Of a DNA stretch of 64,000 bases, positions 16,713-32,942 are shown in pieces. Below the pieces are notes generated by a model that was not told the origin of the DNA, did not search any database, and saw only the letters and a program-made list of their open reading frames with translations. Location: the NCBI RefSeq assembly GCF_024362785.1, contig NZ_CP093301.1, forward strand, positions 3,906,001 through 3,970,000. The letters are read 5' to 3'. The position numbers were made by a program, and so were the translations under genes. The DNA is from Evansella sp. LMS18 (GTDB lineage Bacteria; Bacillota; Bacilli; Bacillales; Salisediminibacteriaceae). Every line of letters starts with the position of its first letter. Positions within the stretch are counted from its first letter, which is position 1.

Positions 16713-17147
16713 GTTTTAGTGACCTTTCTTCATAAAGAGTTAAAAATAACGCAGACGAAGTAATATAAATGTGACTTTTCTGCATTGTTTTGCTAATATT
16801 CCGAAATTATTAGTTAGGCAGGTAAAAAGTATCATATGGAATACTTCAGCAGTGATAAGCTATGATGCGAGAAAAGAGGCTAATCACTTAATTGTGTTCA
16901 AAAAACAGTGTCCCACCGACTAAGTCTATGGAAGTGTTTTCCCTGTAATACTAAATTATTTTTTATGTTATAGTGTTTTAGTGGTATAGACAACTATACA
17001 AAATTTTATGTAAGTTATTATTAGGTTTTATAACATAGTTTACTAGTCATCTGTTTTGCAAAACCTCTTTCGTTCAGTTTTTTTAGGCGAATAAATTTGA
17101 AGGGAGGCCAGCTTTTCATTCAACCAAAAACAAAAGGAGGAATTTTT
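16713..17147. other. Leader region of nagZ
   Basis: About 430 bases without a gene, AT-rich. The only feature I can support is the NagR/DasR-like operator at 16980-16995. Promoter-like A+T tracts (TTATGTTATAGTG near 16964) lie directly before it. An AGGGAGG at 17100 is followed by no longer reading frame than nagZ itself. Confidence 0.5.
16980..16995. promoter_or_regulatory. NagR/DasR-type operator (dre-like) upstream of nagZ
   Basis: AGTGGTATAGACAACT matches the dre consensus AGTGGTCTAGACCACT at 14 of 16 positions and lies in a wider dyad GTATAG-ACAA-CTATAC (16984-16999). GntR-family NagR proteins bind such sites and are released by GlcNAc-6-phosphate. No nagR gene is in the window. Confidence 0.55.
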
Positions 17148-19271
17148 GTGAAAAGGCTACATAAGACGCTGATGGCAGCTATGCTCGCTTCCTTACTGAC
17201 AGTTTCTCAGCTATTTACAGGTGCGGCACTCAGTTATGCTGAAGCTGCTGAAGCAGAAGGCGTTAAAGACCTGGTGATTTTACAGAATGTACCGGAGGCA
17301 GTAATCGAGGTGGAGGAAGATCGGATTGATTTGAAAGCGCTTAATATTTATCATGAAGGGCATTTCACCAGCATCCAGGAGGGCCTGGGATGGCACTCTT
17401 CGAATACGAATGTAGCACAAGTTGATGAAGACGGAACTGTTACATTTACCGGACAGCCAGGAAGAACCTTTGTTTCCGTAACGAATGGGACTCATACTGA
17501 CAAGATTGCGCTGGATTATAAACCTGCGCGAGATGGAAGAAATACAAAAGGGCAGCCCGAACGTGTGCCGACTGTAGTAAAACAGCAGGGTGAAAAATAC
17601 GATATTATTGGACATGCGATAGATAATATGACTATCGAAGAAAAGATCGGCCAGATGCTTATGCCTGATTTCCGTAACTGGAATGGCAGTAATGTAACAG
17701 AAATGCTGCCTGAAATAGAGCAGCTTGTTAAAGACTATCATCTCGGGGGAGTAATTTTATTCAGGGAAAACGTAGTGACAACTGAGCAGACAGCCAAGTT
17801 AGTTTCCCAGTACCAGGATGCTGCTGAAAAATTTGGGCTCCTGCTTACCATTGACCAGGAGGGCGGAATCGTGACACGTCTTCAGTCTGGTACGGACATG
17901 CCTGGGAACATGGCGCTTGGCGCTACCCGGTCAGCGGAAATTACTTATGATGTAGGTCATGCAATCGGTGAGGAGCTTGCTTCATTGGGAATTAATATGA
18001 ACCTTGCTCCTGTGCTTGATGTAAATAATAATCCTGACAATCCGGTAATTGGGGTAAGGTCTTTCAGTGAAGATCCTGAACTTGTAGGCGAACTGGGAGT
18101 GGCTTATACTAATGGACTGCAGGATACAGGTGTAGCTGCAACAGCTAAGCACTTTCCGGGGCACGGGGACACAGATGTAGACTCTCACTTAGGCCTTCCA
18201 GAGGTGCCGCATGATAAAGAAAGACTTCTGGAAGTAGAGTTATATCCGTTCCAGCAGGCAATGGATGCTGGAATTGACGCGATTATGACAGCCCATGTCA
18301 CTTTCCCGCAAATCGACGGTACCAAAGCAATTTCACGGAAAACCGGTCAGGAAATTGCTTTACCGGCAACTCTTTCTTATACAGTGCTCACTGAGTTAAT
18401 GAGAGATGAAATGGAATATGAAGGTGTCATTATTACTGATGCTATGAATATGCAGGCCATCAGCGACCATTTCGGTCCAGTTGATGCAGCTATCCGAACA
18501 GTACAAGCTGGATCTGATATTGTTCTGATGCCAGTAGGCCTTCAGTCTGTGGCGGAAGGGCTGTACAACGCGGTAGACGAAGGGGAAATTACGGAAGAGC
18601 GGGTGGAAGCTTCTGTAAAACGAATTCTCACTCTAAAAATTGAGCGTGGTATTTTTAAAGAAGAAAGCCCGCAGCCTCTTGATGAAAAAATCGCGAATGC
18701 TGTCCAGGTAGTAGGTTCCGAGGAACACAGGCAGGTAGAGAAGGAAGCTTCTGAAAGATCTATTACTCTGGTTAAAAACGATAATGTTTTGCCATTAGAA
18801 GCTGGTGAAGATGAGAATATTGTTGTTATAGGCGGCAGCTATTATGCATCCTTGCTGAGTGCCATCAGAGAGTATCATCAGGATGCTGCAGGGATTAACG
18901 CCTCCTCAACTGGTCATATTAGTTCAGCTCAGTGGGACCAGATTAGAAATGCAGATAAAGTTATCGTTGGAACAACTACAGCAACGGTGGCTGCAAGATC
19001 TGCTTCCAACGCACAAATGGTTATGGTTCAGAACATAATCTCAGAAACAGAAGCACCGGTCATTGCAGTGGGAATCCGTAACCCGTATGACATTATGGCA
19101 TATCCGAATGTAGATGCCTATATCGCCCAGTACGGCTTCAGGCCATCCAGCTTTGCTGCAACAGCAGCGACGATTTTTGGTGAGAATGCACCAACAGGGC
19201 AGCTCCCGATCACAATTCCTGATTTTAACGGGAATATTCTTTACGAGTTTGGACATGGTTTAACGTATTAA
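17148..19271 (+). CDS. nagZ: Exported beta-N-acetylglucosaminidase NagZ (GH3)
   Basis: This 707-residue protein starts at GTG 17148 with AAGGAGG upstream; an in-frame TTG at 17097 is less likely. The signal peptide ends near SYAEA (about residue 33). A roughly 90-residue Ig-like (Big) domain comes first, then the GH3 TIM barrel from about 165, with KHFPGHGDTDVDSH near 335 (the acid/base dyad of bacterial NagZ) and the nucleophile Asp in ITDAMNM near 431, and a C-terminal GH3 domain. As in B. subtilis it should remove terminal GlcNAc from wall fragments outside the cell. The extra Ig-like domain is not in B. subtilis NagZ as I know it. A NagR-like site precedes it and a terminator follows. Confidence 0.92.
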   Translation: MKRLHKTLMAAMLASLLTVSQLFTGAALSYAEAAEAEGVKDLVILQNVPEAVIEVEEDRIDLKALNIYHEGHFTSIQEGLGWHSSNTNVAQVDEDGTVTFTGQPGRTFVSVTNGTHTDKIALDYKPARDGRNTKGQPERVPTVVKQQGEKYDIIGHAIDNMTIEEKIGQMLMPDFRNWNGSNVTEMLPEIEQLVKDYHLGGVILFRENVVTTEQTAKLVSQYQDAAEKFGLLLTIDQEGGIVTRLQSGTDMPGNMALGATRSAEITYDVGHAIGEELASLGINMNLAPVLDVNNNPDNPVIGVRSFSEDPELVGELGVAYTNGLQDTGVAATAKHFPGHGDTDVDSHLGLPEVPHDKERLLEVELYPFQQAMDAGIDAIMTAHVTFPQIDGTKAISRKTGQEIALPATLSYTVLTELMRDEMEYEGVIITDAMNMQAISDHFGPVDAAIRTVQAGSDIVLMPVGLQSVAEGLYNAVDEGEITEERVEASVKRILTLKIERGIFKEESPQPLDEKIANAVQVVGSEEHRQVEKEASERSITLVKNDNVLPLEAGEDENIVVIGGSYYASLLSAIREYHQDAAGINASSTGHISSAQWDQIRNADKVIVGTTTATVAARSASNAQMVMVQNIISETEAPVIAVGIRNPYDIMAYPNVDAYIAQYGFRPSSFAATAATIFGENAPTGQLPITIPDFNGNILYEFGHGLTY

Positions 19272-19294
19272 ATAATAGCTAAAAAATCTTATTG

Positions 19295-19325
19295 GACCCT
19301 CCTGAAGTTTCAGGAGGGTCTTTGC
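19295..19325 (+). terminator. Terminator after nagZ
   Basis: GACCCTCCTGAA pairs with TTCAGGAGGGTC around GT, followed by TTTGCTT. Confidence 0.88.
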
Positions 19326-19673
19326 TTGTTTGATATAAAGGTGAAGATGGTTGAAAAAACAGTGATGGCATGAAAACACAAATGCAAATTAAAATATTAT
19401 GAAAATTTAGATAAATTTACTAGACCATAAGTAATAAAAAATAGCAGAAATTTTTGAAAACATAACTTAACTCCCATATAAATATATTGGTTCACTATGT
19501 ATAGTTGTATTGAGGTCTAGTCCACTTTGGCATTTTTAAGTATTTGAGTTTGCTGTAAGTATTTTTTTAACTTTTCCATCTGCCGGGAGGTGAAATACAA
19601 AACCAAGTGTGTTAAGGCACAGTGGGCTAATCTTATCTGTGAAACTAAAATAATGATCGGGGTGGATTATCAA
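19326..19673. other. Leader region of namZ
   Basis: About 350 AT-rich bases without a gene. It contains the second NagR/DasR-like operator (19511-19526) and a weaker half-site, TACTAGACCATAAGT, near 19419. A frame from GTG 19590 is in phase with namZ, but I prefer the ATG at 19674. Confidence 0.5.
19511..19526. promoter_or_regulatory. Second NagR/DasR-type operator (dre-like) upstream of namZ
   Basis: TGAGGTCTAGTCCACT matches the dre consensus AGTGGTCTAGACCACT at 13 of 16 positions, including the central GGTCTAG. It lies about 160 bases before namZ, in a position comparable to the site before nagZ. Confidence 0.5.
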
Positions 19674-20942
19674 ATGAAAAGTAAGCGCTTTCTTGTTGTG
19701 TTTTTAACAATCGTTTTACTTATCTCTACTTACACCGTTGCCTTAGGCCAGGGGATCGGCAATGGAAGCACGCAGGGGCAGGGAAATAAAGAAGGTCATA
19801 AGAAACAATTTAAACTTGGTATTGAAATGCTCCTGGAAGAACAGTTTGATGTTATTGAAGGGAAAAACGTGGGTCTTATTACGAACCCGACTGGGGTAGA
19901 CCGTAACCTGAACAGCATTGTGGACCTGCTTCATAATGACGACCGGGTTAATCTTACAGCTCTTTACGGTCCTGAGCACGGTGTACGGGGGGACGCACAG
20001 GCAGGAGCTTATGTGCCATTTTATATTGATGAGGTAACTGACCTTCCTGTGTACAGCTTATACGGGCAGACAAGAAAGCCAACACCGGAAATGCTTGAAG
20101 ATGTGGATGTGCTGCTTTTTGATATCCAGGATGTAGGAACACGCTTCTACACTTATATTTACACAATGGCATACGCTATGGAAGCCGCCCAGGAAAATGA
20201 TATTGAATTTGTTGTGCTGGACAGGCCAAACCCATTAGGGGGACTTGATGTTGAAGGACCGGTGTTAGACCCGCAATACAGTTCATTTGTAGGTCTTTAT
20301 CCGATCCCGCTCCGCCACGGTATGACTGTAGGGGAGCTTGCGCTTTACTTTAATGAGGAGTTTGAAATTGGTGCAGATCTTACAGTTGTGGAAATGAAAA
20401 GATGGAACCGCTCCTTTAAATATGATGATCTTCCATTAGAATGGGTGCTTCCTTCACCAAACATGCCTACTCTGGAAACTGCATTAGTATACCCTGGTGC
20501 TGCTCTCATTGAAGGTACCACAAATGTCTCTGAGGGACGAGGAACTACAAAGCCTTTTGAACTGGTAGGAGCACCTTTTATAAACAGCACTGAACTGGCT
20601 GCAGAATTGAATGCTATAGGTCTGGATGGAGTTACCTTCCGGGCAGCGTCATTCACACCGACATTCTCAAAAAATGCAAACACGCTAAGCCATGGTGTAC
20701 AGATTCATGTGACAGACCCTGATAATTTTAACAGTGTGGAAATGGGTCTCCACTTGGTAAAGACAATTCACGACCTTTATCCGGAAGATATTATTTTCAG
20801 ATCTTTCTTTGACAACCTGATCGGCAACGGAGAAGTTCGCCAGCAGATCCTTGATGGCTATTCTGTAGCACAGATTATGGCGGGATGGGAAGAAGATCTG
20901 GAAGAGTTCATGACAAAGCGCGAAAACTATCTGCTGTATTAA
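19674..20942 (+). CDS. namZ: Exported exo-beta-N-acetylmuramidase NamZ (GH171, DUF1343)
   Basis: The 422-residue product starts with a signal peptide (MKSKRFLVVFLTIVLLI...) and then matches the YbbC/NamZ family. Marks are GIEMLLEEQFDVIEGKNVGL, LYGPEHGVRGDAQAG near residue 99, DIQDVGTRFYTYIYT, VLDRPNPLGG and NVSEGRGTTKPFE near 286. The glutamates in GPEHG and SEGRG are the proposed catalytic pair. NamZ releases MurNAc from non-reducing ends, working in turn with NagZ. GGGGTGG precedes the chosen ATG. It lies between nagZ and the AmiE-like gene, the same gene company as in B. subtilis. Confidence 0.93.
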   Translation: MKSKRFLVVFLTIVLLISTYTVALGQGIGNGSTQGQGNKEGHKKQFKLGIEMLLEEQFDVIEGKNVGLITNPTGVDRNLNSIVDLLHNDDRVNLTALYGPEHGVRGDAQAGAYVPFYIDEVTDLPVYSLYGQTRKPTPEMLEDVDVLLFDIQDVGTRFYTYIYTMAYAMEAAQENDIEFVVLDRPNPLGGLDVEGPVLDPQYSSFVGLYPIPLRHGMTVGELALYFNEEFEIGADLTVVEMKRWNRSFKYDDLPLEWVLPSPNMPTLETALVYPGAALIEGTTNVSEGRGTTKPFELVGAPFINSTELAAELNAIGLDGVTFRAASFTPTFSKNANTLSHGVQIHVTDPDNFNSVEMGLHLVKTIHDLYPEDIIFRSFFDNLIGNGEVRQQILDGYSVAQIMAGWEEDLEEFMTKRENYLLY

Positions 20943-20952
20943 GTAAGAGCAA

Positions 20953-20987
20953 GAACCGCCTTCCAGTAATCTGGCGGGCGGTTTCCT
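20953..20987 (+). terminator. Terminator after namZ
   Basis: GAACCGCC...CCAG and CTGG...GGCGGTTTC form a stem with a small internal loop, followed by CCT rather than a long T run, so termination may be partial. Confidence 0.55.
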
Positions 20988-21087
20988 GCTGTTGGAGACT
21001 TATCTTATAATTATTCCTTTCAAAATTCAGGAACAGTGAGTTTACAAGATTAGTAATTTAAGAGCTGAGGTTCATAAAGGAGGAAAT

Positions 21088-22794
21088 ATGAAAAAAATAA
21101 CTTTGTCCACACTGGCTGTAATATTAGGTTCATCACTCATGGTTCCGGGAGCAACGTTTGCCGGACCAGACGGAGAGCAGAGTTTTCAACCCACTTTGGA
21201 GGAGCAAGGGGATAAAAACTCATACGCAAAAGCCCACCCTGTTTTTTCCTGGGATTCTCCCGGTAAATTCTCTCCAGTGCTTCATCCTGGTTCTGTACGG
21301 GGAGCCGGGATGAGGCAGGAACCGCTCAATAGTATTGACCAGGCAATGGAAGGAATGATTCAAAATAATGTTACCCCTGGAGCAGTAACTTTTGTAGCTC
21401 GCAGAGGGCATATTGTACAGCATGAAGCATACGGGCATGCAACCTTGTATAGTGACAACTCCGGTTCAGTGATGGACGACCCTGTTCCGATGGAGAAGGA
21501 CACTATATTTGATATGGCTTCAATAAGCAAAATGTTTACTACTACAGCTGCTATGCAGCTCTACGAACAAAATTATTTTGACCTCGATGATCCTGTGTCA
21601 GACTACATCCCTGAATTCGCACAAAACGGGAAAGAAAATGTGACCATCAGCCAGCTGATGAACCATACATCCGGGTTCGCAGCATGGATACCGCTATACA
21701 GCTACGGAGAAACGAGAGAGGAAAGGATTCAGTATGTTAACGAGTACGGACTCCAGTCTCAGCCGGGAGCAGCACACAGATACAGTGATTTGAACATGAT
21801 CGCCCTTGCAACGTTAATTGAAACCCTCACAGGACAGCGGCTTGATGAATACGTGTATGAAAATATTACCGAACCCCTTGGTATGACAGATACGATGTAT
21901 AATCCCCCGGAATCCCTGAAACCTCGAATTGCAGCAGCGGAATACCAGTCGTTTCCTGCAAGAGGAATGGTCTGGGGAGAAGTACATGACGAAAATGCCT
22001 GGGCCCTTGATGGAGTAGCTGGACATGCTGGTATTTTCTCAACTGCAGGAGACCTGGCTGTATTCTCCCATATGTTCCTGAATGATGGCCGGTACGGCGG
22101 AAAACAAATCCTTGAGCCTGAAACTGTGGAAATAATGACCACAAACCAGACGGCAGAATTTCCAGGTGCCAACCGTGCGTTAGGCTGGCAGCTGGCACAG
22201 GGTTTTTATATGGACGCACTCTCGGAAGGAACAACTTTTGGACATACAGGCTTTACTGGGACCTCTCTTGTTATTAATAAAAATAATGGAACGATTGCGA
22301 TATTACTGACAAACCGGGTCCATCCTTCCCGATCCAACCCGTCCACTAATCCTGGCAGGCAGGATTTTGCCCGTGCTGTTGCAGACGCTATTCCGGTAGC
22401 TGTTCCTGGGAAAGAAGCGGCCTGGTTCTCAGGATATGGAAACAACCTGAATCGGTCGCTGTCAACGGAAGTAGAGTTGAATGGACCTGCTGTTCTTTCA
22501 TATGATACCTGGTACCGCACAGAAGCTGGCTATGACAGGGGCTATGTGGAAGTTTCTCCTGATGGGGAGAACTGGACATCTGCAGGTGCAGTGGCGGACG
22601 GAAGCAGCGGTACTTGGCTGGAAAAAGAAGTTATTATTCCTGAAGACACTAGTTTTGTAAGGTTCCGCTACAGTACTGACGGCGGAGTGAACGGCAGAGG
22701 CTGGTATCTTCATAATATTAAGCTTACACACTCTGAAGGTAAGGTGGAAGTACCTGAATTTTCAGGTGAGGGGTGGAGCAAGAGGAGTTATTAG
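21088..22794 (+). CDS. amiE: Exported serine beta-lactamase-fold hydrolase, AmiE-like (muropeptide amidase candidate)
   Basis: The protein has 568 residues, a signal peptide (cleavage near ATFAGP) and a class-C-like hydrolase domain. Motifs are SISK near 144 (nucleophile Ser and Lys), YSDLN near 231 (YxN) and HTG near 384. In B. subtilis the neighbour of nagZ/namZ is AmiE (YbbE), which splits MurNAc from its stem peptide; the same order and fold suggest that role here. It is longer than a bare catalytic domain: about 110 C-terminal residues (VLSYDTWYRTEAGYDRGYVE...) form a beta-sandwich-like module such as those that bind carbohydrate. An esterase or D-aminopeptidase activity is the alternative. 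Confidence 0.8.
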   Translation: MKKITLSTLAVILGSSLMVPGATFAGPDGEQSFQPTLEEQGDKNSYAKAHPVFSWDSPGKFSPVLHPGSVRGAGMRQEPLNSIDQAMEGMIQNNVTPGAVTFVARRGHIVQHEAYGHATLYSDNSGSVMDDPVPMEKDTIFDMASISKMFTTTAAMQLYEQNYFDLDDPVSDYIPEFAQNGKENVTISQLMNHTSGFAAWIPLYSYGETREERIQYVNEYGLQSQPGAAHRYSDLNMIALATLIETLTGQRLDEYVYENITEPLGMTDTMYNPPESLKPRIAAAEYQSFPARGMVWGEVHDENAWALDGVAGHAGIFSTAGDLAVFSHMFLNDGRYGGKQILEPETVEIMTTNQTAEFPGANRALGWQLAQGFYMDALSEGTTFGHTGFTGTSLVINKNNGTIAILLTNRVHPSRSNPSTNPGRQDFARAVADAIPVAVPGKEAAWFSGYGNNLNRSLSTEVELNGPAVLSYDTWYRTEAGYDRGYVEVSPDGENWTSAGAVADGSSGTWLEKEVIIPEDTSFVRFRYSTDGGVNGRGWYLHNIKLTHSEGKVEVPEFSGEGWSKRSY

Positions 22795-22821
22795 AATCTA
22801 TTAAATAATTCTTCTAAAGGC

Positions 22822-22857
22822 AGATCCGGCTGGAAAATGCAGAGCCGGATCTTTTTC
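22822..22857 (+). terminator. Terminator after the AmiE-like gene
   Basis: AGATCCGGC (22822-22830) pairs with GCCGGATCT (22843-22851) and is followed by TTTTCC. Confidence 0.85.
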
Positions 22858-22889
22858 CTACCTGCGTAATAAAATTAGGAGGTATTAAA

Positions 22890-25800
22890 ATGACAGGATA
22901 CAATAGCAAACGGATACTTTATGTCTTATTTGCTGTGCTGATTTTTCTTAGCGGTATACCGGCGTCTTCTGTGCAGACGATGGCGGCAGATACTCCATTA
23001 TCACTTGGCGAAATCATTGACGAATGGACAAGCCCTGTAGCACCGGGAGTCCTTCAGAGCACCCTGGAAGTGGAAAGTGAGGCAGGGAAGCAGCACCTCC
23101 ATATTCTTGATATAGAAGGTGGAAAGGAACACCTTTCTTTTGAAACCGGCCTTTCAAACGGCAAGGTGCTGGGGATGCAGAAAACTACTGAACAGGCTCA
23201 GTCAGTCAGCAGAGGCGGACACCGGGTTATCGGGGCCATTAACGGTGATTTTTATAATACATCCAATGGATTGCCAATTCATTTAATGATTCACAAAGGT
23301 GAAATTTATACGAGTCCGGTAAACCGGACCGCAATAGGCTTTAAAGAGAACGGGGAAGCAGTGATAGGCGTTCCACAGCTGGCAATGTCAATAAAGATAA
23401 ATGGTGAATACGAAGATGTTCCCGGCCAGTTTACTCTTAATAAGGGCCGTGGAGCAAATGATCTTGTATTGTATTCTGAAACATTCAGCGACAGTACAAA
23501 AACGAGTGATGAGGGGACGGAAGTAATTGTCAGGATTGACGAAGGAGAGATCCGTTCAGGAAATAAAATAGCAGGAACAGTGGTAAGCGTTGAAGAAAAT
23601 ACAGGTAATTCAGCGCTTGAGGAAGGATATATCATTTTGTCAGCAAGGGGAAATTCGGAAGCATTAATAACATCCTTGTCTGATAATGATCAATTGGAAA
23701 TCTCTTTTACTTTATCTGATGAATGGGGAGAAGTGCAGGAAGCGGTAGGAGGAAATCATCTTCTTGTTGATCAAGGAGAAGTAACTTCAGAAGCAGCTGG
23801 TGCAGGAAATGCGGTTGCACCGAGAACAGCCGCAGGTATCAGAGCTGACGGATCTGTCTTTTTTGCAGTTGTTGACGGAAGAAATCCAGGATACAGCGAA
23901 GGAGTAACAATAAAAGAAACAGCTCAGTTAATGAAAGAATATGGAGCTGAAAAGGCAGTGAATCTTGACGGCGGTGGATCCTCCACTATGCTTGCAAGGC
24001 AGCCTGGTGAAACGGAAGCAGATATTGTTAATGTCCCATCAGACGGGGTGGAACGGGAAGTTGCTAATTCTCTGCTGCTTGTGAGTAATGCCGAGGAAGG
24101 GCCGCTCAGCCAGCTGGCAGTTCTTCCACAGCAGCTGAGGATACTTTCAGGAAGCAGCTACAGCTTTACTGTAAAAGGGATGGATGAATTTCATAATCCA
24201 GCGGAAATAGAAGAGGAACCAGACTGGTCAGTTGAAAACCTCTCAGGCTCAATAACCGACGATGGAATTTTTACAGCCGGATCTGAAGCAGGCAGGGGAA
24301 GGGTTCATGCTTCAGCAGGAGAGGCATCAGGCATTTCAGCCATTGAAGTAGTGAATGAGCTGACAGACCTTGCTTTTCCTCAGTCAGAAATAACAGTGGA
24401 TCCTGCAGACACAATAGAACTTGAAGTATCTGCTTATAAAGACAGACAAAAGGTATACGCTGATAATGAACAATTCACCTGGAACGTGGACGGTGATATT
24501 GGAACAATTGACAATGATGGAGTTTTTACTGCTGCTGACAGGACAGGGAGCGGAACTATAACTGTTAGCTATGGATCAGTCGAGGCTTCTGTAAAGGTTG
24601 AAGTTGGAAAAGAACCAGTGATCCTGGAAGACTTTGAAAATGGAATTGACCACTGGTACGTTCACGGAGCCCGGTATACATCAATAGATATGAGCCTTGC
24701 CACAGCTCCGGAGGATCCTGTCAGGTTTGGAAATCACGCGATGCGCCTTGATTATGATTTTACCGGCCAGCAGGGAACTTCGGGAGTGTACGCTTCCCCG
24801 TATGAGCGGATCGAAGTGGAAGGGTATCCTGAAAGAATCGGCATGTGGGTATATGGTGACGGCAATAACCAATGGCTCAGAGCACAAATGCGGGACGGGG
24901 ACAATAACTGGTTTCCTGTAAACTTCACAGAAAACCATCCAGACGGGGTTACCTGGGAAGGCTGGAAATATGTCGAAGCTGATGTGCCAAAAGGGCGCCC
25001 TACCCCGCTGGAAATGGAAATACCAGTGCGGTATATGGCAACGTATGACGACAATAAAACTGCGGGCACTCTTTATATTGATCAAATCAGGGCAGTGTAC
25101 GGTGAAACAAATGAAGATTTAATAAACCCTTCGCTAACAGATATGAAACCGGAGGGCGGCAGCATTGTTAATACAAATACTCCCGAGATAAGCATAGTGG
25201 CAAGCGACGAAGAAGGAGGATCCGGAATTGATTCGGATTCTGTCGAGCTCTTAATAAATGGTGAGGCGGTGAATGCTTCGTTTGACGAAAGTACAGGGGA
25301 GATCAGCTACACCCCTGAAGAGTCCATAGCTGATGGTTACAATGTCGTTTATGCGGCAGTAAAAGACCTTTCCGGAAATCCTGCGTTTGCTGAGTGGTCT
25401 TTCCATGTAGAATCAGGAGGCCCTCAATACCGCTTTTCAGGACCTGAAGAAATATACGCGGGACTGGAATTTACCGTGGAACTTACAATTGATGAGCCTT
25501 CACAGCTTCAGGGAATGAATGCAGAATTAACATTCGATCCGGATATTGTCCAGGTAGTCGATGGGGACCCGGATCGTGAAGGCGTACAGGTTCTTATTGG
25601 GGAAAAGTTCGGGGATGAACAAATAATAACTAATGAAGCAGATAATGAAAATGGCCGTATATTCCTTGCTTTTGATAATTTAATGGAATTAGGGAATTTG
25701 GATATTCAAGAAACTGCTGCAGAAATTACTTTTTCAGTTAACAGAGAGGCTGCAGGTGATTTTGCACTAAATTTTGTTTATGGAGAATTGGCGTACAGTG

Positions 25801-27755
25801 ATGGAAGAAGCGTGACAACAAGACTTCTCCCTCACACATCAAAGGTGGGACAGCCGTTATCCTTGTCCGTGAAAGGACTATCCTATGGTTCCACAAGCGA
25901 AATTCAAGTCATAAACCAGCAGACAGACGAACCTGTTGAAGGAGCGGAAGTTCACATATTAGATCCGGACCTTAGTTTATTGACTATTGATGAGGATACA
26001 CCAGTTTACAGTGCTATTGGCGGAACTGTTACAGGAGAGGCGCTGGCAGGTGACCGTTATTTATTTAGCGAAACAAGACAAAATTATTACAGAATCTATT
26101 TGCCTGACGGCTCAAGAGGCTGGGTTTCTTCATCTGCTGCAAGCACAGAGGACTGGGGAACACCACTCGGCATCACGGACAATAATGGGGTGTTTATAAC
26201 AGATACACTGGCATTATCCGTTCTTACCTACAGGATCCAGGCCGTGAAAGATGAGCTTGTCAGCCAGATTGCAGAAATATCGATAGTTCCTCAGCTCGGG
26301 GGAAAAACACCTGAAAACCTTGTTTTAACATGGCAGCAGTCTCCTAAAACTACCCAGAGTTTCACATGGCGGACAGCTCCTCCTGTTGAGGGGAGTGTGG
26401 CAGAATTTGTGCCGGAAAGTGAGTTTACTGACTTTTCTGCTGATAATGTACAAAGAGCAGAAGGAAACAGCTTTTTATTTACTGATAATCTCGGAGAAAT
26501 GCGAATTCATGAAGCAGAAGCAACAGGCCTTGAACCAGGCACAACGTATATTTACCGGACAGGCAATGGTGAACCGGATGGCTGGAGTGAGTCTTATTCG
26601 TTTACAACTGAATCTGCCGGGGACGAAGCCTACACATTTTTATTCACCGCAGACAGTCAGGCTGTAACGAGAGAACAATTTAGTATATGGACAGAGCTGT
26701 TTAATAACGCACTCGTTAAACACCCGGATGCAAGATTTATGCTCCATGGGGGTGACATTGTGGAAAACGGAAATCTGCTGCAGGAATGGGAGTATTTCTT
26801 TGAGGCCTCTGAAGGATTAATTTCACGGATTCCATTCATGGCAGTCCTTGGCAACCATGATGTATACGGAGATGGAGAAGAAACCTTCCGCAGTGTGTTC
26901 CAGTATCCGCAAAACGGTCCGGAAGGCCAGGAGGAGTTTGTTTACTCATTTGAATACGGTGAGGCTAACTTTCTGATGCTTAATTCAGAATCAACAAGGG
27001 AAGAAATGGAACATCAGGCGGAATGGCTGAAAGAGGAAGTGGAAAAGTCCGACAAAACTTGGCAGATCGCAATGTTTCACAGGCCGCCTTATTTAAGTAA
27101 TCCTTTGCGCGGAGACGATTTGACGAAAGAAATCCTGGCTCCAGCACTCGAAGAAATGGGAGTGGATCTCGTGTTAGTCGGTCACGACCATGCGTATTCA
27201 CGTACTTATCCTATGTTTGACGGTGCGCCTGCGGAAGAAGGTACTGTATATATTACGGGAGGCTCTGCAGGACCAAAGTTTTACCCAGGGGAAGAGTATG
27301 ACTACATTGAAAAACTCTTTGATGAGGATATCCAGATTTTCTCAGCGTTAACAGTGGGCAGTAATGAAATCAGCCTTGAAGTAACTACAATAGACGGGCA
27401 TGTTGTAGATGTTGTGTCGTTTGAGAAGGATACAGAAGAACCGGTGAACAACCCTCCAACCATTAATAAGCCTGTTGAAAATCAAGTAAGCAATATTAAT
27501 CAACAGCTCGTTATCGATATAAGCGAAACATTTACAGACGAAGATGGGGACACTCTGGTATATTCAGTATCTTCAAGTCGTGAAGATATTGCCACAGCTG
27601 TAGTGGAAAATGAGAAATTAATAATAGACCCTGTATCCAAGGGCAGAACAGAGATTACTCTTACCGCTGATGACGGAAGAGGCGGAACTGCTGAAGACAG
27701 CTTCAATGCTGTTTTTGTCCCTGAGCAGGCGAGAGCGGGAAAGAAAAATAACTAA
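22890..27755 (+). CDS. Giant exported phosphodiester glycosidase / purple-acid-phosphatase-like fusion
   Basis: A 1621-residue exported protein. Order of parts by residue: signal peptide 1-33; NAGPA-type phosphodiester glycosidase about 110-400 (NGDFYN near 117, DGGGSSTM near 360); Ig-like repeats 405-575; a jelly-roll, carbohydrate-binding-like stretch 577-740 (EDFENGIDHWYVHG); an Ig-like segment 745-845; a cohesin-like segment 847-985; an SH3b-like segment near 1038-1085; a purple-acid-phosphatase FN3-like domain 1140-1245. Next is a metallophosphatase 1250-1505 with all five motifs (DSQ, GGDIVENG, GNHD, FHRPPY, GHDHAY), then a cadherin-like end. No anchor motif is seen. NAGPA domains cut sugar-1-phosphodiesters; together the two catalytic parts could strip GlcNAc-phosphate linkages or teichoic-acid phosphates from the wall. 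The substrate is inferred. Confidence 0.8.
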   Translation: MTGYNSKRILYVLFAVLIFLSGIPASSVQTMAADTPLSLGEIIDEWTSPVAPGVLQSTLEVESEAGKQHLHILDIEGGKEHLSFETGLSNGKVLGMQKTTEQAQSVSRGGHRVIGAINGDFYNTSNGLPIHLMIHKGEIYTSPVNRTAIGFKENGEAVIGVPQLAMSIKINGEYEDVPGQFTLNKGRGANDLVLYSETFSDSTKTSDEGTEVIVRIDEGEIRSGNKIAGTVVSVEENTGNSALEEGYIILSARGNSEALITSLSDNDQLEISFTLSDEWGEVQEAVGGNHLLVDQGEVTSEAAGAGNAVAPRTAAGIRADGSVFFAVVDGRNPGYSEGVTIKETAQLMKEYGAEKAVNLDGGGSSTMLARQPGETEADIVNVPSDGVEREVANSLLLVSNAEEGPLSQLAVLPQQLRILSGSSYSFTVKGMDEFHNPAEIEEEPDWSVENLSGSITDDGIFTAGSEAGRGRVHASAGEASGISAIEVVNELTDLAFPQSEITVDPADTIELEVSAYKDRQKVYADNEQFTWNVDGDIGTIDNDGVFTAADRTGSGTITVSYGSVEASVKVEVGKEPVILEDFENGIDHWYVHGARYTSIDMSLATAPEDPVRFGNHAMRLDYDFTGQQGTSGVYASPYERIEVEGYPERIGMWVYGDGNNQWLRAQMRDGDNNWFPVNFTENHPDGVTWEGWKYVEADVPKGRPTPLEMEIPVRYMATYDDNKTAGTLYIDQIRAVYGETNEDLINPSLTDMKPEGGSIVNTNTPEISIVASDEEGGSGIDSDSVELLINGEAVNASFDESTGEISYTPEESIADGYNVVYAAVKDLSGNPAFAEWSFHVESGGPQYRFSGPEEIYAGLEFTVELTIDEPSQLQGMNAELTFDPDIVQVVDGDPDREGVQVLIGEKFGDEQIITNEADNENGRIFLAFDNLMELGNLDIQETAAEITFSVNREAAGDFALNFVYGELAYSDGRSVTTRLLPHTSKVGQPLSLSVKGLSYGSTSEIQVINQQTDEPVEGAEVHILDPDLSLLTIDEDTPVYSAIGGTVTGEALAGDRYLFSETRQNYYRIYLPDGSRGWVSSSAASTEDWGTPLGITDNNGVFITDTLALSVLTYRIQAVKDELVSQIAEISIVPQLGGKTPENLVLTWQQSPKTTQSFTWRTAPPVEGSVAEFVPESEFTDFSADNVQRAEGNSFLFTDNLGEMRIHEAEATGLEPGTTYIYRTGNGEPDGWSESYSFTTESAGDEAYTFLFTADSQAVTREQFSIWTELFNNALVKHPDARFMLHGGDIVENGNLLQEWEYFFEASEGLISRIPFMAVLGNHDVYGDGEETFRSVFQYPQNGPEGQEEFVYSFEYGEANFLMLNSESTREEMEHQAEWLKEEVEKSDKTWQIAMFHRPPYLSNPLRGDDLTKEILAPALEEMGVDLVLVGHDHAYSRTYPMFDGAPAEEGTVYITGGSAGPKFYPGEEYDYIEKLFDEDIQIFSALTVGSNEISLEVTTIDGHVVDVVSFEKDTEEPVNNPPTINKPVENQVSNINQQLVIDISETFTDEDGDTLVYSVSSSREDIATAVVENEKLIIDPVSKGRTEITLTADDGRGGTAEDSFNAVFVPEQARAGKKNN

Positions 27756-27760
27756 TCAGC

Positions 27761-27790
27761 AGAAGGCAGCTTTCAAGCTGCCTTCTTTTA
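27761..27790 (+). terminator. Terminator after the giant exported enzyme
   Basis: AGAAGGCAGCTT and AAGCTGCCTTCT form a perfect 12-bp stem around TC, followed by TTTT. Confidence 0.9.
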
Positions 27791-28097
27791 ATAGTGGGCT
27801 GAAATGACTACGTCTTCGGACTAGTTTTTTATAGATAGTTATGAATATTCTGGAAACTAAGCATGATTTACCTATTGGCAAAAATGGTAGATTTTTAGAC
27901 TATTAAAGTAATAGAAATTTCGTCATTCAAAATAGTTTAAGAGGGGGGGAGAGACGTAAAGCCTGGAATGACGAAAATGTATATTTTGAAACTCCATTAG
28001 TATCGGGGGAGTACGTTTGTCCCCTCAAACAACACCTGTCTTTTCATAAGCAAATGAATAAATTTCTACTAATCTATTAAAAAAGAGGTGGAAGATT
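27791..28097. other. Spacer before the S15-type peptidase gene
   Basis: About 300 AT-rich bases with no gene. An 11-bp inverted repeat, TTTCGTCATTC (27918-27928) and GAATGACGAAA (27966-27976), with arms 37 bases apart, is the only notable feature. It could be an operator or a leader hairpin. Confidence 0.45.
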
Positions 28098-29984
28098 TTG
28101 CAAAAAACGAAGAAGAAGCTTATACTCGTCACTCTGATTTTTTCCTTGTTGTTCTCTGCTCCTTTCGCGGGTGGTTTTTCCGCTCTGGCCGATGATACCG
28201 GGACAGTACCTGCACATGTGGTGGAGGATGGGGTTACCCAGGAAGCCTTCTCTTATGAAGACGCAGTTAGAGAAAGTGTTTTTGTAGAAACAAACCTTGA
28301 TACAGACGGCGATGGGGTAAACGACCGTATTGCTGTGGATATCATCCGCCCTGCGGAAACAGAGGAAGGACTTGAAGTACCGGTAATTATGGTACCCAGC
28401 CCATATTACGAGAGACTTGGACGAGGAAATGAATCACAGCTGAAGGAATTTGAAGATGGTGTGCCTGTGAAGTTTCCTCTCTATTATGATAACTATTTCG
28501 TTCCGAGAGGCTATGCAGTAGCGCTTGTAGATATGATAGGCACAAACAACTCCGACGGCTGTCCAACGACTGGCGGCTACGAGGAAACAGAAGGGGTAAA
28601 AGCAGTCATCGACTGGCTTAACGGACGTGCTGATGCAGTGGACAGAGACGACAACGAAGCAGATGCATACTGGAGTACAGGTAAAGTTGGAATATACGGG
28701 AAATCGTATGATGGAACACTTGCAAATGCGGTTGCTGCTACAGGAGTAGACGGCCTTGAGACAATCGTACCGATCGTGGCTATCAGCAGCTGGTATAATT
28801 ACTACCGCCAGAATGGTGTTACCTTAAGAAACAATGGAGCAAGCGGGCTCGCCAACACAGTTGTTGCATCAGAGAGAAGAGATCTTTGCGCTCCTGTAAG
28901 AAGCGAGATTCTTGACTTAATGGATGACCCTTCCGGTAACTATAATGAGTTCTGGGACGAGCGAAACTATGTGAAAGACGTGGACAATGTAAAAGCAAGT
29001 GTATTTTTAGTACACGGATTAAACGACCTGAACGTGCAGACAAACCATTTCGGCGAGTGGTGGGAAGGTCTTGAAAAAAATGATGTGCCGAGAAAAATCT
29101 GGCTTACACAGACAGCACATACAGAGCCCTTTGATTTCCGCCGCGCGGAATGGGTAGATACGATTCACCGCTGGTTTGATCACTGGCTCCTCGGTATTGA
29201 TAACGGCATCATGGACGAGCCTATGGCAGATGTGGAAAGAGGTGCGAACGAATGGGAAACTTATGAAACGTGGCCTGCAGCTGATGCTAAGGATGTAAAC
29301 CTTCGTTTCGGTCCGGCGGCTGAAGATGGAGCTCCAGGTGTACTTACATCAGGGCCTGTACAGGGGAACAATGTGGACACGCTGGTGAACGACTGGACAA
29401 GGACTGAAACACAGCTTGTGACAAACCCGGAAGATCCAAGTGATAACAGACTAGTATTCCTCTCGGATGTTCTAACAGAGGACCTTCGAATAAGCGGAAC
29501 ACCTGAGCTTGATGTAAGGGCTACAATTAATGGGGAAGCAGCAAACCTTACAGCGTATCTTGTTGACTATGGAACAGATGAGCGTGTGAACCACCAGGGA
29601 GGCTCCAGCGGGCTGAGACAACTCGATGAGCGTGACTGCTGGGGACAAAGCACAGACAGAGACAGCGCATGCTATAGGCAGCATGAAATTCTTACACATA
29701 CAAGAGATTATGAAATCGTGACCCGCGGGTTTATGGATGCCCAAAACTATAAGAATTTCTGGGAAAGCAACCCTCTCCGTGACCATAAGCATTACCGGTT
29801 CCAGTGGGATGCGTATACGCACGACTATGTATTTAAAGAAGGCCACCGTATCGGTGTTGTCTTAGCAAGCAGCACAAGAAGCCGCACAGTACCAAACAGA
29901 GATGAAGTGGAAGTGGAAGTCCGTCTCGGCCAGAGCGGAATTACACTGCCAGTTTCCGGCGGTAAAAAAGCAGTGGATTTTTAA
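28098..29984 (+). CDS. Exported Xaa-Pro dipeptidyl-peptidase-like enzyme (S15/CocE family)
   Basis: A 628-residue protein starting at TTG 28098 after AAGAGGTGG, with a signal peptide ending near FSALA. The alpha/beta-hydrolase core shows the nucleophile in IYGKSYDGTLAN, the acid in VHGLNDLNV and the histidine in TQTAHTEPFDF, followed by the jelly-roll C-terminal domain typical of X-Pro dipeptidyl-peptidases (S15). The segment NLDTDGDGVNDRIAVDIIRP is usual for the family. It probably cuts X-Pro dipeptides from peptides outside the cell. It stands alone with its own terminator. Acyl-esterase activity (CocE type) cannot be excluded. Confidence 0.85.
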   Translation: MQKTKKKLILVTLIFSLLFSAPFAGGFSALADDTGTVPAHVVEDGVTQEAFSYEDAVRESVFVETNLDTDGDGVNDRIAVDIIRPAETEEGLEVPVIMVPSPYYERLGRGNESQLKEFEDGVPVKFPLYYDNYFVPRGYAVALVDMIGTNNSDGCPTTGGYEETEGVKAVIDWLNGRADAVDRDDNEADAYWSTGKVGIYGKSYDGTLANAVAATGVDGLETIVPIVAISSWYNYYRQNGVTLRNNGASGLANTVVASERRDLCAPVRSEILDLMDDPSGNYNEFWDERNYVKDVDNVKASVFLVHGLNDLNVQTNHFGEWWEGLEKNDVPRKIWLTQTAHTEPFDFRRAEWVDTIHRWFDHWLLGIDNGIMDEPMADVERGANEWETYETWPAADAKDVNLRFGPAAEDGAPGVLTSGPVQGNNVDTLVNDWTRTETQLVTNPEDPSDNRLVFLSDVLTEDLRISGTPELDVRATINGEAANLTAYLVDYGTDERVNHQGGSSGLRQLDERDCWGQSTDRDSACYRQHEILTHTRDYEIVTRGFMDAQNYKNFWESNPLRDHKHYRFQWDAYTHDYVFKEGHRIGVVLASSTRSRTVPNRDEVEVEVRLGQSGITLPVSGGKKAVDF

Positions 29985-31681: not shown

Positions 31682-31817
31682 CTCCGCTTTTTAATCTAAT
31701 ACCCTTAAGATTTATTTTTAAAAGGATTATTTTTATCATGGAACATGCTCTTTGCAGCTATGTTAAAATAATGGATTTTTCGGGAAAACCTAGTTGATAA
31801 GTGCAGGAGGTGGTATT

Positions 31818-32942
31818 TTGTCAGTTTTAAAAGATTTCGTTAATAAAAATAAAACACAAATTCAAGAAGACTTAATCAACGTAGTTAAGGCAGAGTCACC
31901 AACTCACGATAAAAAGCTTGTAGATGAGTGCGGTATTTTGCTTATTGATTTATTTAAAGAAAGACTTGGCGCAGATCCATATGTGCATGTACAAGTGGAG
32001 CGGGGGAATCACCTTTGCTTTACTATTGGAAAAGGAAGTAAAAAAATCCTCATCCTGGGCCACTTTGATACTGTCTGGGAAAAAGGCCAGCTGCCGATCC
32101 GGATTAAAGACGAAAAGTTCTACGGCCCGGGGGTGCTGGATATGAAAGCTGGAATTATCCAGTCCATGTGGGGCGTAAAAGCATTATGGGATAATGACTT
32201 GCTTCATGATAAAGAAATTACCTTTCTATTAACCTCGGACGAAGAGGTGGGAAGCGGAACTTCAAGAGAAATCATCGAGGAACGTGCAAAGGAAAATGAC
32301 GCAGTGTTAGTAATGGAGACACCGGATTCAGGGACAGGTGCCGCAAAAACAGGCAGAAAAGGTGTAGGCAATTATAAATTGAAGATTAAAGGAAAAAGTT
32401 CTCACTCTGGCGCCCACCATGAAGAAGGAATCAGCGCCATCAAGGAGCTGGCACAGCAGATTATACTTCTGGAAAATATGACAGATTATGAAAAAGGCAC
32501 CACTGTTAACACAGGCGTTATTAGCGGAGGGAGACGGTCAAATATAGTTCCTGACTATGCGGAAGCTACAGTGGATCTCCGGGTGAAAACAATGGAAGAA
32601 GCATACAGAATGGGGCAGTTACTAACTACATTAAAACCTTTTACGCCTGGCATTGAGCTGGAAGTGGAAGGAGGAATGAACAGGCCTCCTATGGAACGTA
32701 CAGAAACAAATGTTGAATTATTCCACAAAGCAAGGGAAGCTGCCCTTGAAACAGGATTTCAGCTGGAGGAGTCACAAGTAGGAGGGGCGAGTGACGGGAA
32801 CTTTACCGCTGCGCTGGGAGTTCCCACACTTGATGGATTAGGAGTTCCCGGGGAAGGCCCTCATGCCGAGTACGAACATATACTCATAAACGAGCTTCCG
32901 GGAAGAACAGAGTTTATAGCCAATTTTATAAAAAAGTTATAA
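31818..32942 (+). CDS. M20-family metallopeptidase (glutamate carboxypeptidase type)
   Basis: About 374 residues, cytosolic. Zinc-site motifs are all present: GHFDTVW, GPGVLDMKAGI, TSDEEVGS (the catalytic Glu), METPDSG and, at the end, GPHAEYEHI. The middle segment SSHSGAHHEEGISAI belongs to the lid domain. The start is TTG 31818, seven bases after AGGAGG; a TTG at 31794 has no ribosome site. CPG2-like M20 enzymes release C-terminal glutamate or act on acylated amino acids. In this neighbourhood, breakdown of imported wall peptides is conceivable but not shown. Confidence 0.87.
   Translation: MSVLKDFVNKNKTQIQEDLINVVKAESPTHDKKLVDECGILLIDLFKERLGADPYVHVQVERGNHLCFTIGKGSKKILILGHFDTVWEKGQLPIRIKDEKFYGPGVLDMKAGIIQSMWGVKALWDNDLLHDKEITFLLTSDEEVGSGTSREIIEERAKENDAVLVMETPDSGTGAAKTGRKGVGNYKLKIKGKSSHSGAHHEEGISAIKELAQQIILLENMTDYEKGTTVNTGVISGGRRSNIVPDYAEATVDLRVKTMEEAYRMGQLLTTLKPFTPGIELEVEGGMNRPPMERTETNVELFHKAREAALETGFQLEESQVGGASDGNFTAALGVPTLDGLGVPGEGPHAEYEHILINELPGRTEFIANFIKKL

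What the first reader, a model, noticed from the sequence alone, without database searches (positions are those of the whole stretch)
22890..27755. 1621-residue exported fusion of phosphodiester glycosidase and purple-acid-phosphatase-like enzyme
One polypeptide has a NAGPA-type domain (cuts sugar-1-phosphodiesters), binding-type modules (jelly-roll, cohesin-like, SH3b-like, Ig-like) and a complete metallophosphatase with all five metal motifs. It sits directly downstream of nagZ-namZ-amiE. A joint action, first removing GlcNAc or splitting a sugar-phosphate bond and then taking the phosphate, would suit the teichoic acid linkage unit or glycosylated teichoic acid. It could thus supply both GlcNAc and phosphate. 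This domain pairing within a muropeptide cluster looks new to me.
Basis: partly seen in the sequence, partly recalled or inferred. Interest (0 to 1): 0.8.

Follow-up and report, generated by a model that had tools for sequence, protein, structure and literature searches.

The report
Two-step secreted phosphate-harvesting enzyme
A bacterium close to Evansella clarkii encodes a large exported protein that joins an enzyme type able to free sugars from sugar-phosphate links to a second type able to release phosphate; it belongs to a scattered, already noticed protein family, many of whose members carry a DNA mark suggesting they are switched on when phosphate runs short.

Summary
One 1621-aa ORF (22890-27755 +) has a full NAGPA domain, Ig, jelly-roll and cohesin-type modules, and a purple-acid-phosphatase-fold metallophosphatase with the metal-ligand motifs. 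The PAP tyrosine is replaced, so it is not a true purple acid phosphatase.

The pairing is not new. It is mentioned in print (Updegrove 2024, PMC11488536) and found here in at least 24 of 397 genomes of the order.

The muropeptide link is weak. Of 19 fusion-bearing genomes with namZ, only this one and Evansella clarkii have the two adjacent. TagB/F-type wall-teichoic-acid polymerases occur in 7 of 25 fusion genomes against 15 of 25 hand-picked comparators.

A new result: PhoP-box-like repeats lie upstream of 19 of 28 fusions against 43 of 368 control genes (p 9e-11); the pstS positive control gives 25 of 30. The window's own copy and that of E. clarkii lack them.

Best reading: a two-step extracellular enzyme, phosphodiester glycosidase then phosphomonoesterase, that mines phosphate from sugar-1-phosphodiesters, Pho-controlled in most carriers examined but not visibly in Evansella. 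Substrate and activities unproven.

The parts
22890..27755 (+). Gene for the 1621-aa exported NAGPA / PAP-like fusion
22890..22988 (+). Signal-peptide-like N-terminus (about residues 1-33), judged by eye
   Evidence: no predictor run
22986..24089 (+). Phosphodiester glycosidase (NAGPA/DUF2233) domain, about residues 33-400
   Evidence: Pfam 6e-40; VIA Z 37.4 to 6ozd, 31.3 to 3ohg, 25.2 to 6pku; motifs N118/D120, P311RT, D329GR, N358xDGGGS conserved
24090..24614 (+). Ig-like (Big_2-type) modules, about residues 401-575
   Evidence: Big_2 below cut-off; LigA matches
24600..25124 (+). Jelly-roll, carbohydrate-binding-type module, about residues 571-745
   Evidence: FlaA1 9cyn Z 18.3, CBM27 1of4 Z 13.5
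25218..25406 (+). Ig-like module (Big_13), residues 777-839
   Evidence: below cut-off here, matched by 13 of 19 aligned members
25446..25811 (+). Cohesin-like module, residues 853-974
   Evidence: 24.9 bits against cut-off 24.1; type II cohesins in Foldseek
26019..26135 (+). Possible SH3b-like module, residues 1044-1082
   Evidence: SH3_3 E 0.009, below cut-off; 4 of 19 aligned members match
26310..26609 (+). Pur_ac_phosph_N (FN3-like) domain, residues 1141-1240
   Evidence: Pfam 5e-19
26634..27434 (+). Metallophosphatase domain, about residues 1249-1515, metal-ligand motifs present, PAP tyrosine replaced by Glu1292
   Evidence: Pfam 3e-21; 6hwr Z 42.6
27447..27701 (+). C-terminal Ig-like (Big_9) stretch, residues 1520-1604, below cut-off and modelled with low confidence
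22822..22852 (+). Hairpin followed by a T run (terminator-like) between the amiE-like gene and the fusion gene
   Evidence: dG -18.8 for 22815-22862, z -3.5; not listed by the scan, whose loop limit it exceeds
27761..27786 (+). Hairpin with a short T run (terminator-like) after the fusion gene
   Evidence: dG -18.6 for 27757-27795, z -5.45; not listed by the scan
17097..22794 (+). Upstream muropeptide genes: nagZ-like 17097-19271, namZ 19590-20942, amiE-like 21088-22794 (context, not shown to be functionally linked)

Best explanation
It is a secreted two-enzyme phosphate-scavenging protein. The N-terminal NAGPA domain hydrolyses the sugar C1-O-P bond of a sugar-1-phosphodiester (for example a sugar-phosphate joining surface or extracellular glycopolymers), giving a free sugar end and a phosphomonoester. 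The jelly-roll, Ig and cohesin-type modules hold the protein on a glycan matrix. The C-terminal PAP-fold binuclear metallophosphatase then frees the phosphate. In most of the carriers examined the gene appears to be a PhoP-controlled, stand-alone member of the Pho response, a partner of PhoD and GlpQ rather than of NamZ. In Evansella the gene sits behind the MurNAc-recycling genes, has lost or never had the Pho box, and is probably its own transcription unit. Shown: domains, motifs, predicted folds, distribution, absence of conserved context, Pho-box-like repeats in relatives. Inferred: activities, reaction order, substrate, glycan binding, PhoP binding.
For: Domain and fold matches and near-invariant motifs in a 23-row alignment (20 fusions, 2 jelly-roll-PAP, 1 NAGPA-jelly-roll). 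Pho-box-like four-repeat arrays: 19 of 28 fusions against 43 of 368 control genes from the same loci, Fisher 9e-11; 2.8 expected in dinucleotide shuffles. The same score finds 25 of 30 pstS-family genes. Exact hexamer pairs at 11 nt (12) and 22 nt (9) on the coding strand, against 0 and 1 on the other strand. A pstS-derived matrix puts 17 of 28 fusions above the control 95th percentile, p 5e-10. Worst member per group: 8 of 16 groups still pass, p 3e-4. No neighbour family is shared by more than 4 of 22 loci compared (19 of them fusions).
Against: The window copy and E. clarkii score 18 and have no Pho box, although pstS in both scores 23, so the regulatory argument comes from relatives and not from the window. 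9 of 28 fusions miss the threshold. I know of no assayed bacterial NAGPA-PAP fusion. Trees show repeated domain gain or loss, and phosphatase-only relatives also show some Pho-box excess (4 of 8), so the two activities need not be coupled. The motif was first noticed in an exploratory scan of seven patterns.
Confidence: 0.55

Rival explanations
1. One reading: the enzyme strips the GlcNAc-1-phosphate linkage unit or glycosylated wall teichoic acid as part of the nagZ-namZ-amiE muropeptide programme.
For: Gene order murR-nagZ-namZ-amiE-fusion is kept in Evansella clarkii. The linkage-unit bond (sugar-1-P to O6 of MurNAc, recalled) is the NAGPA type of bond. LCP transferases, which make such bonds (recalled), occur in 25 of 25 fusion genomes (no background run). 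Hairpins also separate nagZ, namZ and the amiE-like gene from each other, so the hairpin before the fusion does not set it apart.
Against: namZ adjacent in only 2 of 19 fusion genomes that have namZ, two near-sister species. TagB/F-type polymerase in 7 of 25 fusion genomes against 15 of 25 comparators.
Confidence: 0.14
2. ShfP-like role: a sporulation-stage phosphoesterase that releases glycerol or another signal from (lipo)teichoic acid.
For: The phosphatase part fits the description of the extracellular calcineurin-like radiation around ShfP (YvnB), in which NAGPA fusions are named. Spo0A occurs in 25 of 25 fusion genomes.
Against: Spo0A occurs in 388 of 394 genomes of the order, so this says nothing. 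SigG-like sites in 1 of 23 upstream regions, SigF/E/K in 0 of 23 (strict recalled patterns); Pho-box-like repeats instead.
Confidence: 0.1
3. Predatory, competitive or matrix-remodelling enzyme that cuts phosphodiester-linked glycans of other organisms; phosphate release is secondary.
For: NAGPA is paired with a TelC-like enzyme and varied binding domains in large proteins of spore-forming Bacillota, read as conflict proteins (PMC12419801, passages). The accessory modules vary between relatives.
Against: Pho-box-like repeats upstream of most fusions examined.
Confidence: 0.13

Closest known systems
ShfP (YvnB)-type extracellular calcineurin-like phosphoesterases, B. subtilis (Updegrove 2024)
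   Same: Secreted, Ig modules and a calcineurin-like catalytic domain; Pur_ac_phosph_N-type FN3 and NAGPA fusions are named in that radiation
   Different: ShfP itself has a lamin-tail domain and no NAGPA is described for it; a putative SigG site there, Pho-box-like repeats here in relatives. Direct sequence comparison with ShfP was not made.
PhoD phosphodiesterase of B. subtilis
   Same: PAP-related fold (2yeq Z 27.6), extracellular, Pho regulon, proposed release of phosphate from teichoic acid
   Different: PhoD has a tyrosinate-ligated iron, the equivalent position here is Glu/Asp in 23 of 23 rows; no glycosidase partner
Vertebrate NAGPA ('uncovering enzyme')
   Same: Fold (6pku Z 25.2) and RTA.G / NLDGGGS motifs
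   Different: 21-22% identity over the aligned part, no phosphatase partner, other substrate (lysosomal glycans, recalled)
Metabacillus dongyingensis WP_243551320.1 and Pseudobutyrivibrio WP_151625912.1 (plasmid-borne fusions)
   Same: NAGPA and PAP-like domains in one protein
   Different: About 28-33% identity, no namZ among the listed neighbours (the gene tables are incomplete)

Membership tests
Phosphodiester glycosidase (NAGPA, PF09992) | Domain score over the curated cut-off | tested here: met
   137.6 bits against 25; 19 of 19 aligned members match at E 0.001
Phosphodiester glycosidase (NAGPA, PF09992) | NAGPA fold and conserved motifs | tested here: met
   6pku Z 25.2, 3ohg Z 31.3; N118, D120, R312, D329, D360 in 20-21 of the 21-22 rows with a letter
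Phosphodiester glycosidase (NAGPA, PF09992) | Cleavage of a sugar-1-phosphodiester | not testable with these tools
   needs an assay
Purple acid phosphatase | PAP fold with N-terminal FN3-like domain | tested here: met
   6hwr Z 42.6, 2.3 A over 360; Pur_ac_phosph_N
Purple acid phosphatase | Metal ligands Asp, Asp, Asn, His, His, His | tested here: met
   D1255, D1289, N1322, H1397, H1432, H1434; 22-23 of 23 rows
Purple acid phosphatase | Tyrosine ligand to Fe(III) (GDxxY), cause of the colour | tested here: not met
   Glu or Asp in 23 of 23 rows, so not filed as a purple acid phosphatase
ShfP-like extracellular calcineurin-like phosphoesterases | Secreted calcineurin-like domain with adhesion or carbohydrate-binding modules | tested here: met
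   against the description; secretion judged by eye
ShfP-like extracellular calcineurin-like phosphoesterases | Placement in the ShfP tree | not tested
   I did not obtain the ShfP sequence or the published alignment
Pho regulon (PhoP-controlled genes) | Pho-box repeats upstream in the window | tested here: not met
   score 18, below the control mean of 19.1; no matrix hit within 2 bits of the control 99th percentile in the 64-kb window
Pho regulon (PhoP-controlled genes) | Pho-box repeats upstream in relatives | tested here: met
   19 of 28 fusions (window and E. clarkii included as misses) against 43 of 368 controls
Muropeptide recycling (nagZ-namZ-amiE) cluster member | Conserved linkage with namZ | tested here: not met
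   2 of 19 fusion genomes that have namZ, near-sister species

The most novel reading that the evidence does not exclude
A dedicated branch of the Pho response in Bacillaceae-type bacteria: a single secreted protein mines phosphate from sugar-1-phosphodiester bonds that tie wall, capsular or matrix glycopolymers together (including the LCP-made sugar-1-P-6-MurNAc anchor), a route beside GlpQ and PhoD that needs no classical teichoic acid. In Evansella the gene has been moved next to MurNAc recycling and out of Pho control, where phosphate removal from MurNAc could help NamZ and NagZ.
Probability: 0.3. Interest if true: 0.62.

Novelty: new member of a known kind. Interest (0 to 1): 0.42.

Why it matters
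If true, bacteria have an unstudied enzyme route to phosphate locked in sugar-phosphate links of cell-surface and matrix glycans, in genomes that often (18 of 25) lack a TagB/F-type teichoic acid polymerase. It would give the mostly uncharacterised bacterial 'phosphodiester glycosidase' family a testable physiological setting (phosphate starvation), and it warns against reading the window's gene order as a pathway.

Tried and rejected
Muropeptide-cluster reading: set back mainly by the lack of conserved linkage and of shared neighbours. The hairpin between the amiE-like gene and the fusion is only weak support, because hairpins of similar strength lie between nagZ and namZ and between namZ and the amiE-like gene, and because the terminator scan listed neither hairpin that flanks the fusion. 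On checking I therefore raised this rival from 0.12 to 0.14.

Teichoic-acid-only reading: weakened by PF04464 in 7 of 25 fusion genomes against 15 of 25 comparators. The comparators were chosen by hand from genomes already listed (same genus, same family, first rows of the order list, and two genomes with jelly-roll-PAP proteins but no NAGPA in them), so this is not a random sample; 3 of the 15 have only weak matches (best E 6e-9 to 1e-5).

Sporulation: Spo0A in 25 of 25 carriers but also in 388 of 394 genomes of the order, so uninformative. Sigma-factor patterns no better than chance (consensus strings recalled).

LCP co-occurrence, 25 of 25, was run without a background and is not counted as evidence.

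Literature: 'yvnB' 8 papers, 'phosphodiester glycosidase' 10, NAGPA+bacteria+teichoic 107, mostly chance word hits, DUF2233 6, three of four of uncovering enzyme/NAGPA/crystal structure/catalytic 386, Pho regulon+purple acid phosphatase+Bacillus 6, NamZ+muramidase+NagZ 0, three of four of PhoP/Pho box/TTAACA/Bacillus subtilis 37, phosphate starvation+NAGPA+phosphodiester+Bacillus 3. I opened 7 papers, by passages or one section only; none of what I read there reports Pho control of a NAGPA-PAP fusion. Das 2013 and Myers 2016 were not held and are not relied on.

Rows dropped: the Pho-box test left out L068 (same genome as L048), L058 (G109, gene runs to the contig end) and L082 (relative cut by the contig end, not classed). 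G237 (L093), where the fusion reads as two overlapping ORFs, was not counted as a fusion. L053 and L069 are the same contig, so one of the 10 jelly-roll-PAP rows and some control rows are counted twice there. One control, L073's 161-aa ORF, may be the front of a jelly-roll-PAP gene.

Full report
WHAT IS THERE. The ORF at 22890-27755 (+) encodes 1621 aa (protein P0001). Pfam finds NAGPA at 228-397 (6e-40), Cohesin at 853-974, Pur_ac_phosph_N at 1141-1240 and Metallophos at 1249-1436, with weaker Ig-type and SH3-type matches. AlphaFold models of residues 32-775 and 776-1621, built on 19 aligned sequences each, have mean pLDDT 87.7 and 84.6. VIA-align gives Z 37.4 to 6ozd, 31.3 to 3ohg and 25.2 to guinea-pig NAGPA (6pku) for the first part; the jelly roll matches FlaA1 (Z 18.3) and CBM27 modules (Z about 13.5). 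The second part matches kidney-bean purple acid phosphatase (Z 42.6, 2.3 A over 360 residues), wheat phytase (37.2), PhoD (27.6) and GpdQ (23.9). In a 23-row alignment (the window protein, 19 other fusions, 2 jelly-roll-PAP proteins and 1 NAGPA-jelly-roll protein) the NAGPA motifs (N118, D120, PRT 311-313, DGR 329-331, NxDGGGS 358-364) and the metallophosphatase ligands (D1255, D1289, N1322, H1397, H1432, H1434) are near-invariant, while the PAP tyrosine position is Glu or Asp in all 23.

NOT A NEW PAIRING. Updegrove et al. 2024 (PMC11488536; passages and section 7 read) describe a 'vast radiation' of extracellular calcineurin-like phosphoesterases around B. subtilis ShfP and say that they may be fused to the phosphodiester glycosidase (Pfam NAGPA). 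A 2025 survey pairs NAGPA with TelC-like enzymes in large proteins of spore-forming Bacillota (PMC12419801, passages). Fusions also occur on plasmids of Metabacillus and Pseudobutyrivibrio and in contigs named as Lachnospiraceae and Clostridia. Jelly-roll-PAP and NAGPA-jelly-roll proteins lacking the partner also occur, and the fusion label needs 7 changes on the tree of the phosphatase part and 4 on that of the NAGPA part, so parts have been gained or lost repeatedly.

HOST AND SETTING. The nearest named relative is Evansella clarkii (95% over the full length). In the genus only 2 of 9 genomes, the window's and E. clarkii's (G017), carry the full fusion. The window's genome has one NAGPA and one Pur_ac_phosph_N protein, both this one. 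The upstream genes are nagZ-like, namZ and an amiE-like beta-lactamase-fold protein. A 10-bp hairpin with a T run lies between the amiE-like gene and the fusion (dG -18.8, z -3.5) and another follows the fusion (dG -18.6, z -5.45). This suggests a separate transcription unit, but only weakly: the terminator scan listed neither (loop too long, T run too short), and hairpins also lie between nagZ and namZ (dG -22.6, z -5.2) and between namZ and the amiE-like gene (dG -22.9, z -3.5). Of 25 fusion genomes, 19 have namZ; only the window and E. clarkii have it next to the fusion. In the other 17 it is on another contig or 0.39 to 3.24 Mb away by contig coordinates. Close namZ relatives are also restricted to these two species within the 9 genomes of the genus, so the adjacency may be one event. 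No gene family is shared by the neighbourhoods of more than 4 of 22 loci compared (19 fusions, 3 partial relatives; mostly 20-kb stretches).

TEICHOIC ACID. TagB/F-type polymerases (PF04464) occur in 7 of 25 fusion genomes and in 15 of 25 hand-picked comparators, so classical wall teichoic acid is not a condition for having the enzyme. LCP proteins occur in 25 of 25 (no background run), so an LCP-made sugar-1-phosphate anchor remains possible.

PHO BOXES. A first scan of seven promoter patterns upstream of 23 genes (20 fusions, 3 partial relatives) showed one clear excess, TTHAHA pairs (11 of 23 against 0.9 in mononucleotide shuffles; 9 of the 11 are fusions). I then scored four such hexamers at 10-12 nt steps in 250 nt upstream (plus 60 nt of gene). 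Result: 19 of 28 fusions reach 21 of 24, against 43 of 368 other genes of the same loci that have at least 100 nt free upstream (Fisher 9e-11; Mann-Whitney 9e-9); dinucleotide shuffles expect 2.8 of 28. pstS-family genes of the fusion genomes as positive control: 25 of 30. Exact hexamers pair at 11 nt (12 pairs) and 22 nt (9 pairs) on the coding strand and hardly on the other (0 and 1); in the 368 controls these distances do not stand out (13 and 12 pairs, against up to 16 at other distances). A matrix built from 23 pstS sites gives 17 of 28 fusions above the 95th and 7 above the 99th percentile of 367 controls (p 5e-10). Of 9 fusion loci first looked at after the motif was noticed (L080, L083, L086-L092), 6 reach 21, though most are kin of earlier ones. 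Taking the worst member of each of 16 family-level groups, 8 reach 21 (p 3e-4). Partial relatives: jelly-roll-PAP 4 of 10 (p 0.008; one row doubled), phosphatase-only 4 of 8 (p 0.005, but p 0.10 with the matrix), NAGPA-jelly-roll 2 of 8 (p 0.09). The mark may thus follow the phosphatase part as much as the fusion. Against: the window's gene and that of E. clarkii score 18, although pstS in both scores 23, and the 64-kb window has no matrix hit within 2 bits of the control 99th percentile. The 11-nt repeat form of PHO boxes, said to be seen also in B. subtilis, is described in PMC4415409 (passages); the hexamer string itself is recalled.

MECHANISM. NAGPA chemistry turns a sugar-1-phosphodiester into a free sugar end and a phosphomonoester; a PAP-fold enzyme turns a phosphomonoester into Pi (both from knowledge of the families). 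Joined in one secreted chain with glycan-binding-type modules and, in most fusions examined, Pho-box-like repeats, this makes a phosphate-scavenging two-step enzyme the most likely reading (0.55). PhoD and GlpQ give the known parallel in B. subtilis, where they take phosphate from wall teichoic acid under PhoPR control (PMC6232261, PMC4223295; passages). Which glycan is cut is unknown. Steps shown: sequence, predicted folds, motifs, distribution, upstream repeats in relatives. Steps inferred: both activities, their order, PhoP binding, substrate.

VERDICT. Observation confirmed; interpretation partly supported (phosphate supply yes; muropeptide or teichoic-acid tie and novelty of the pairing no). 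A new member of a known kind, with one finding that I did not meet in the parts of papers I read, the probable Pho control of much of the fusion family.

Noticed in passing
window 21088-22794: The amiE-like beta-lactamase-fold gene carries an extra C-terminal InhA-like MAM domain (PF20773, 2e-12).
   Followed up: no
window 28098-29984: A Xaa-Pro dipeptidyl-peptidase gene follows the fusion and keeps this place in E. clarkii.
   Followed up: no
L050 4704-19901: Next to the fusion in G209 lie four mutually related ORFs (604, 924, 542 and 249 aa, the last cut by the end of the stretch), an array of paralogues of unknown kind.
   Followed up: no
L073 9568-13255: A locus named 'Roseburia sp. 1XD42-34' holds a jelly-roll-PAP gene that groups with Siminovitchia, so the assembly may be misnamed. 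A 161-aa ORF overlapping its start has the best Pho-box matrix score of all controls and may be the front part of the same gene.
   Followed up: partly
L093 6297-10408: In G237 the fusion reads as two overlapping ORFs (658 and 777 aa), NAGPA half and phosphatase half.
   Followed up: no
L048 2614-3737: The M20 peptidase gene that is whole in the window (31794-32942) is split into two ORFs in E. clarkii.
   Followed up: no
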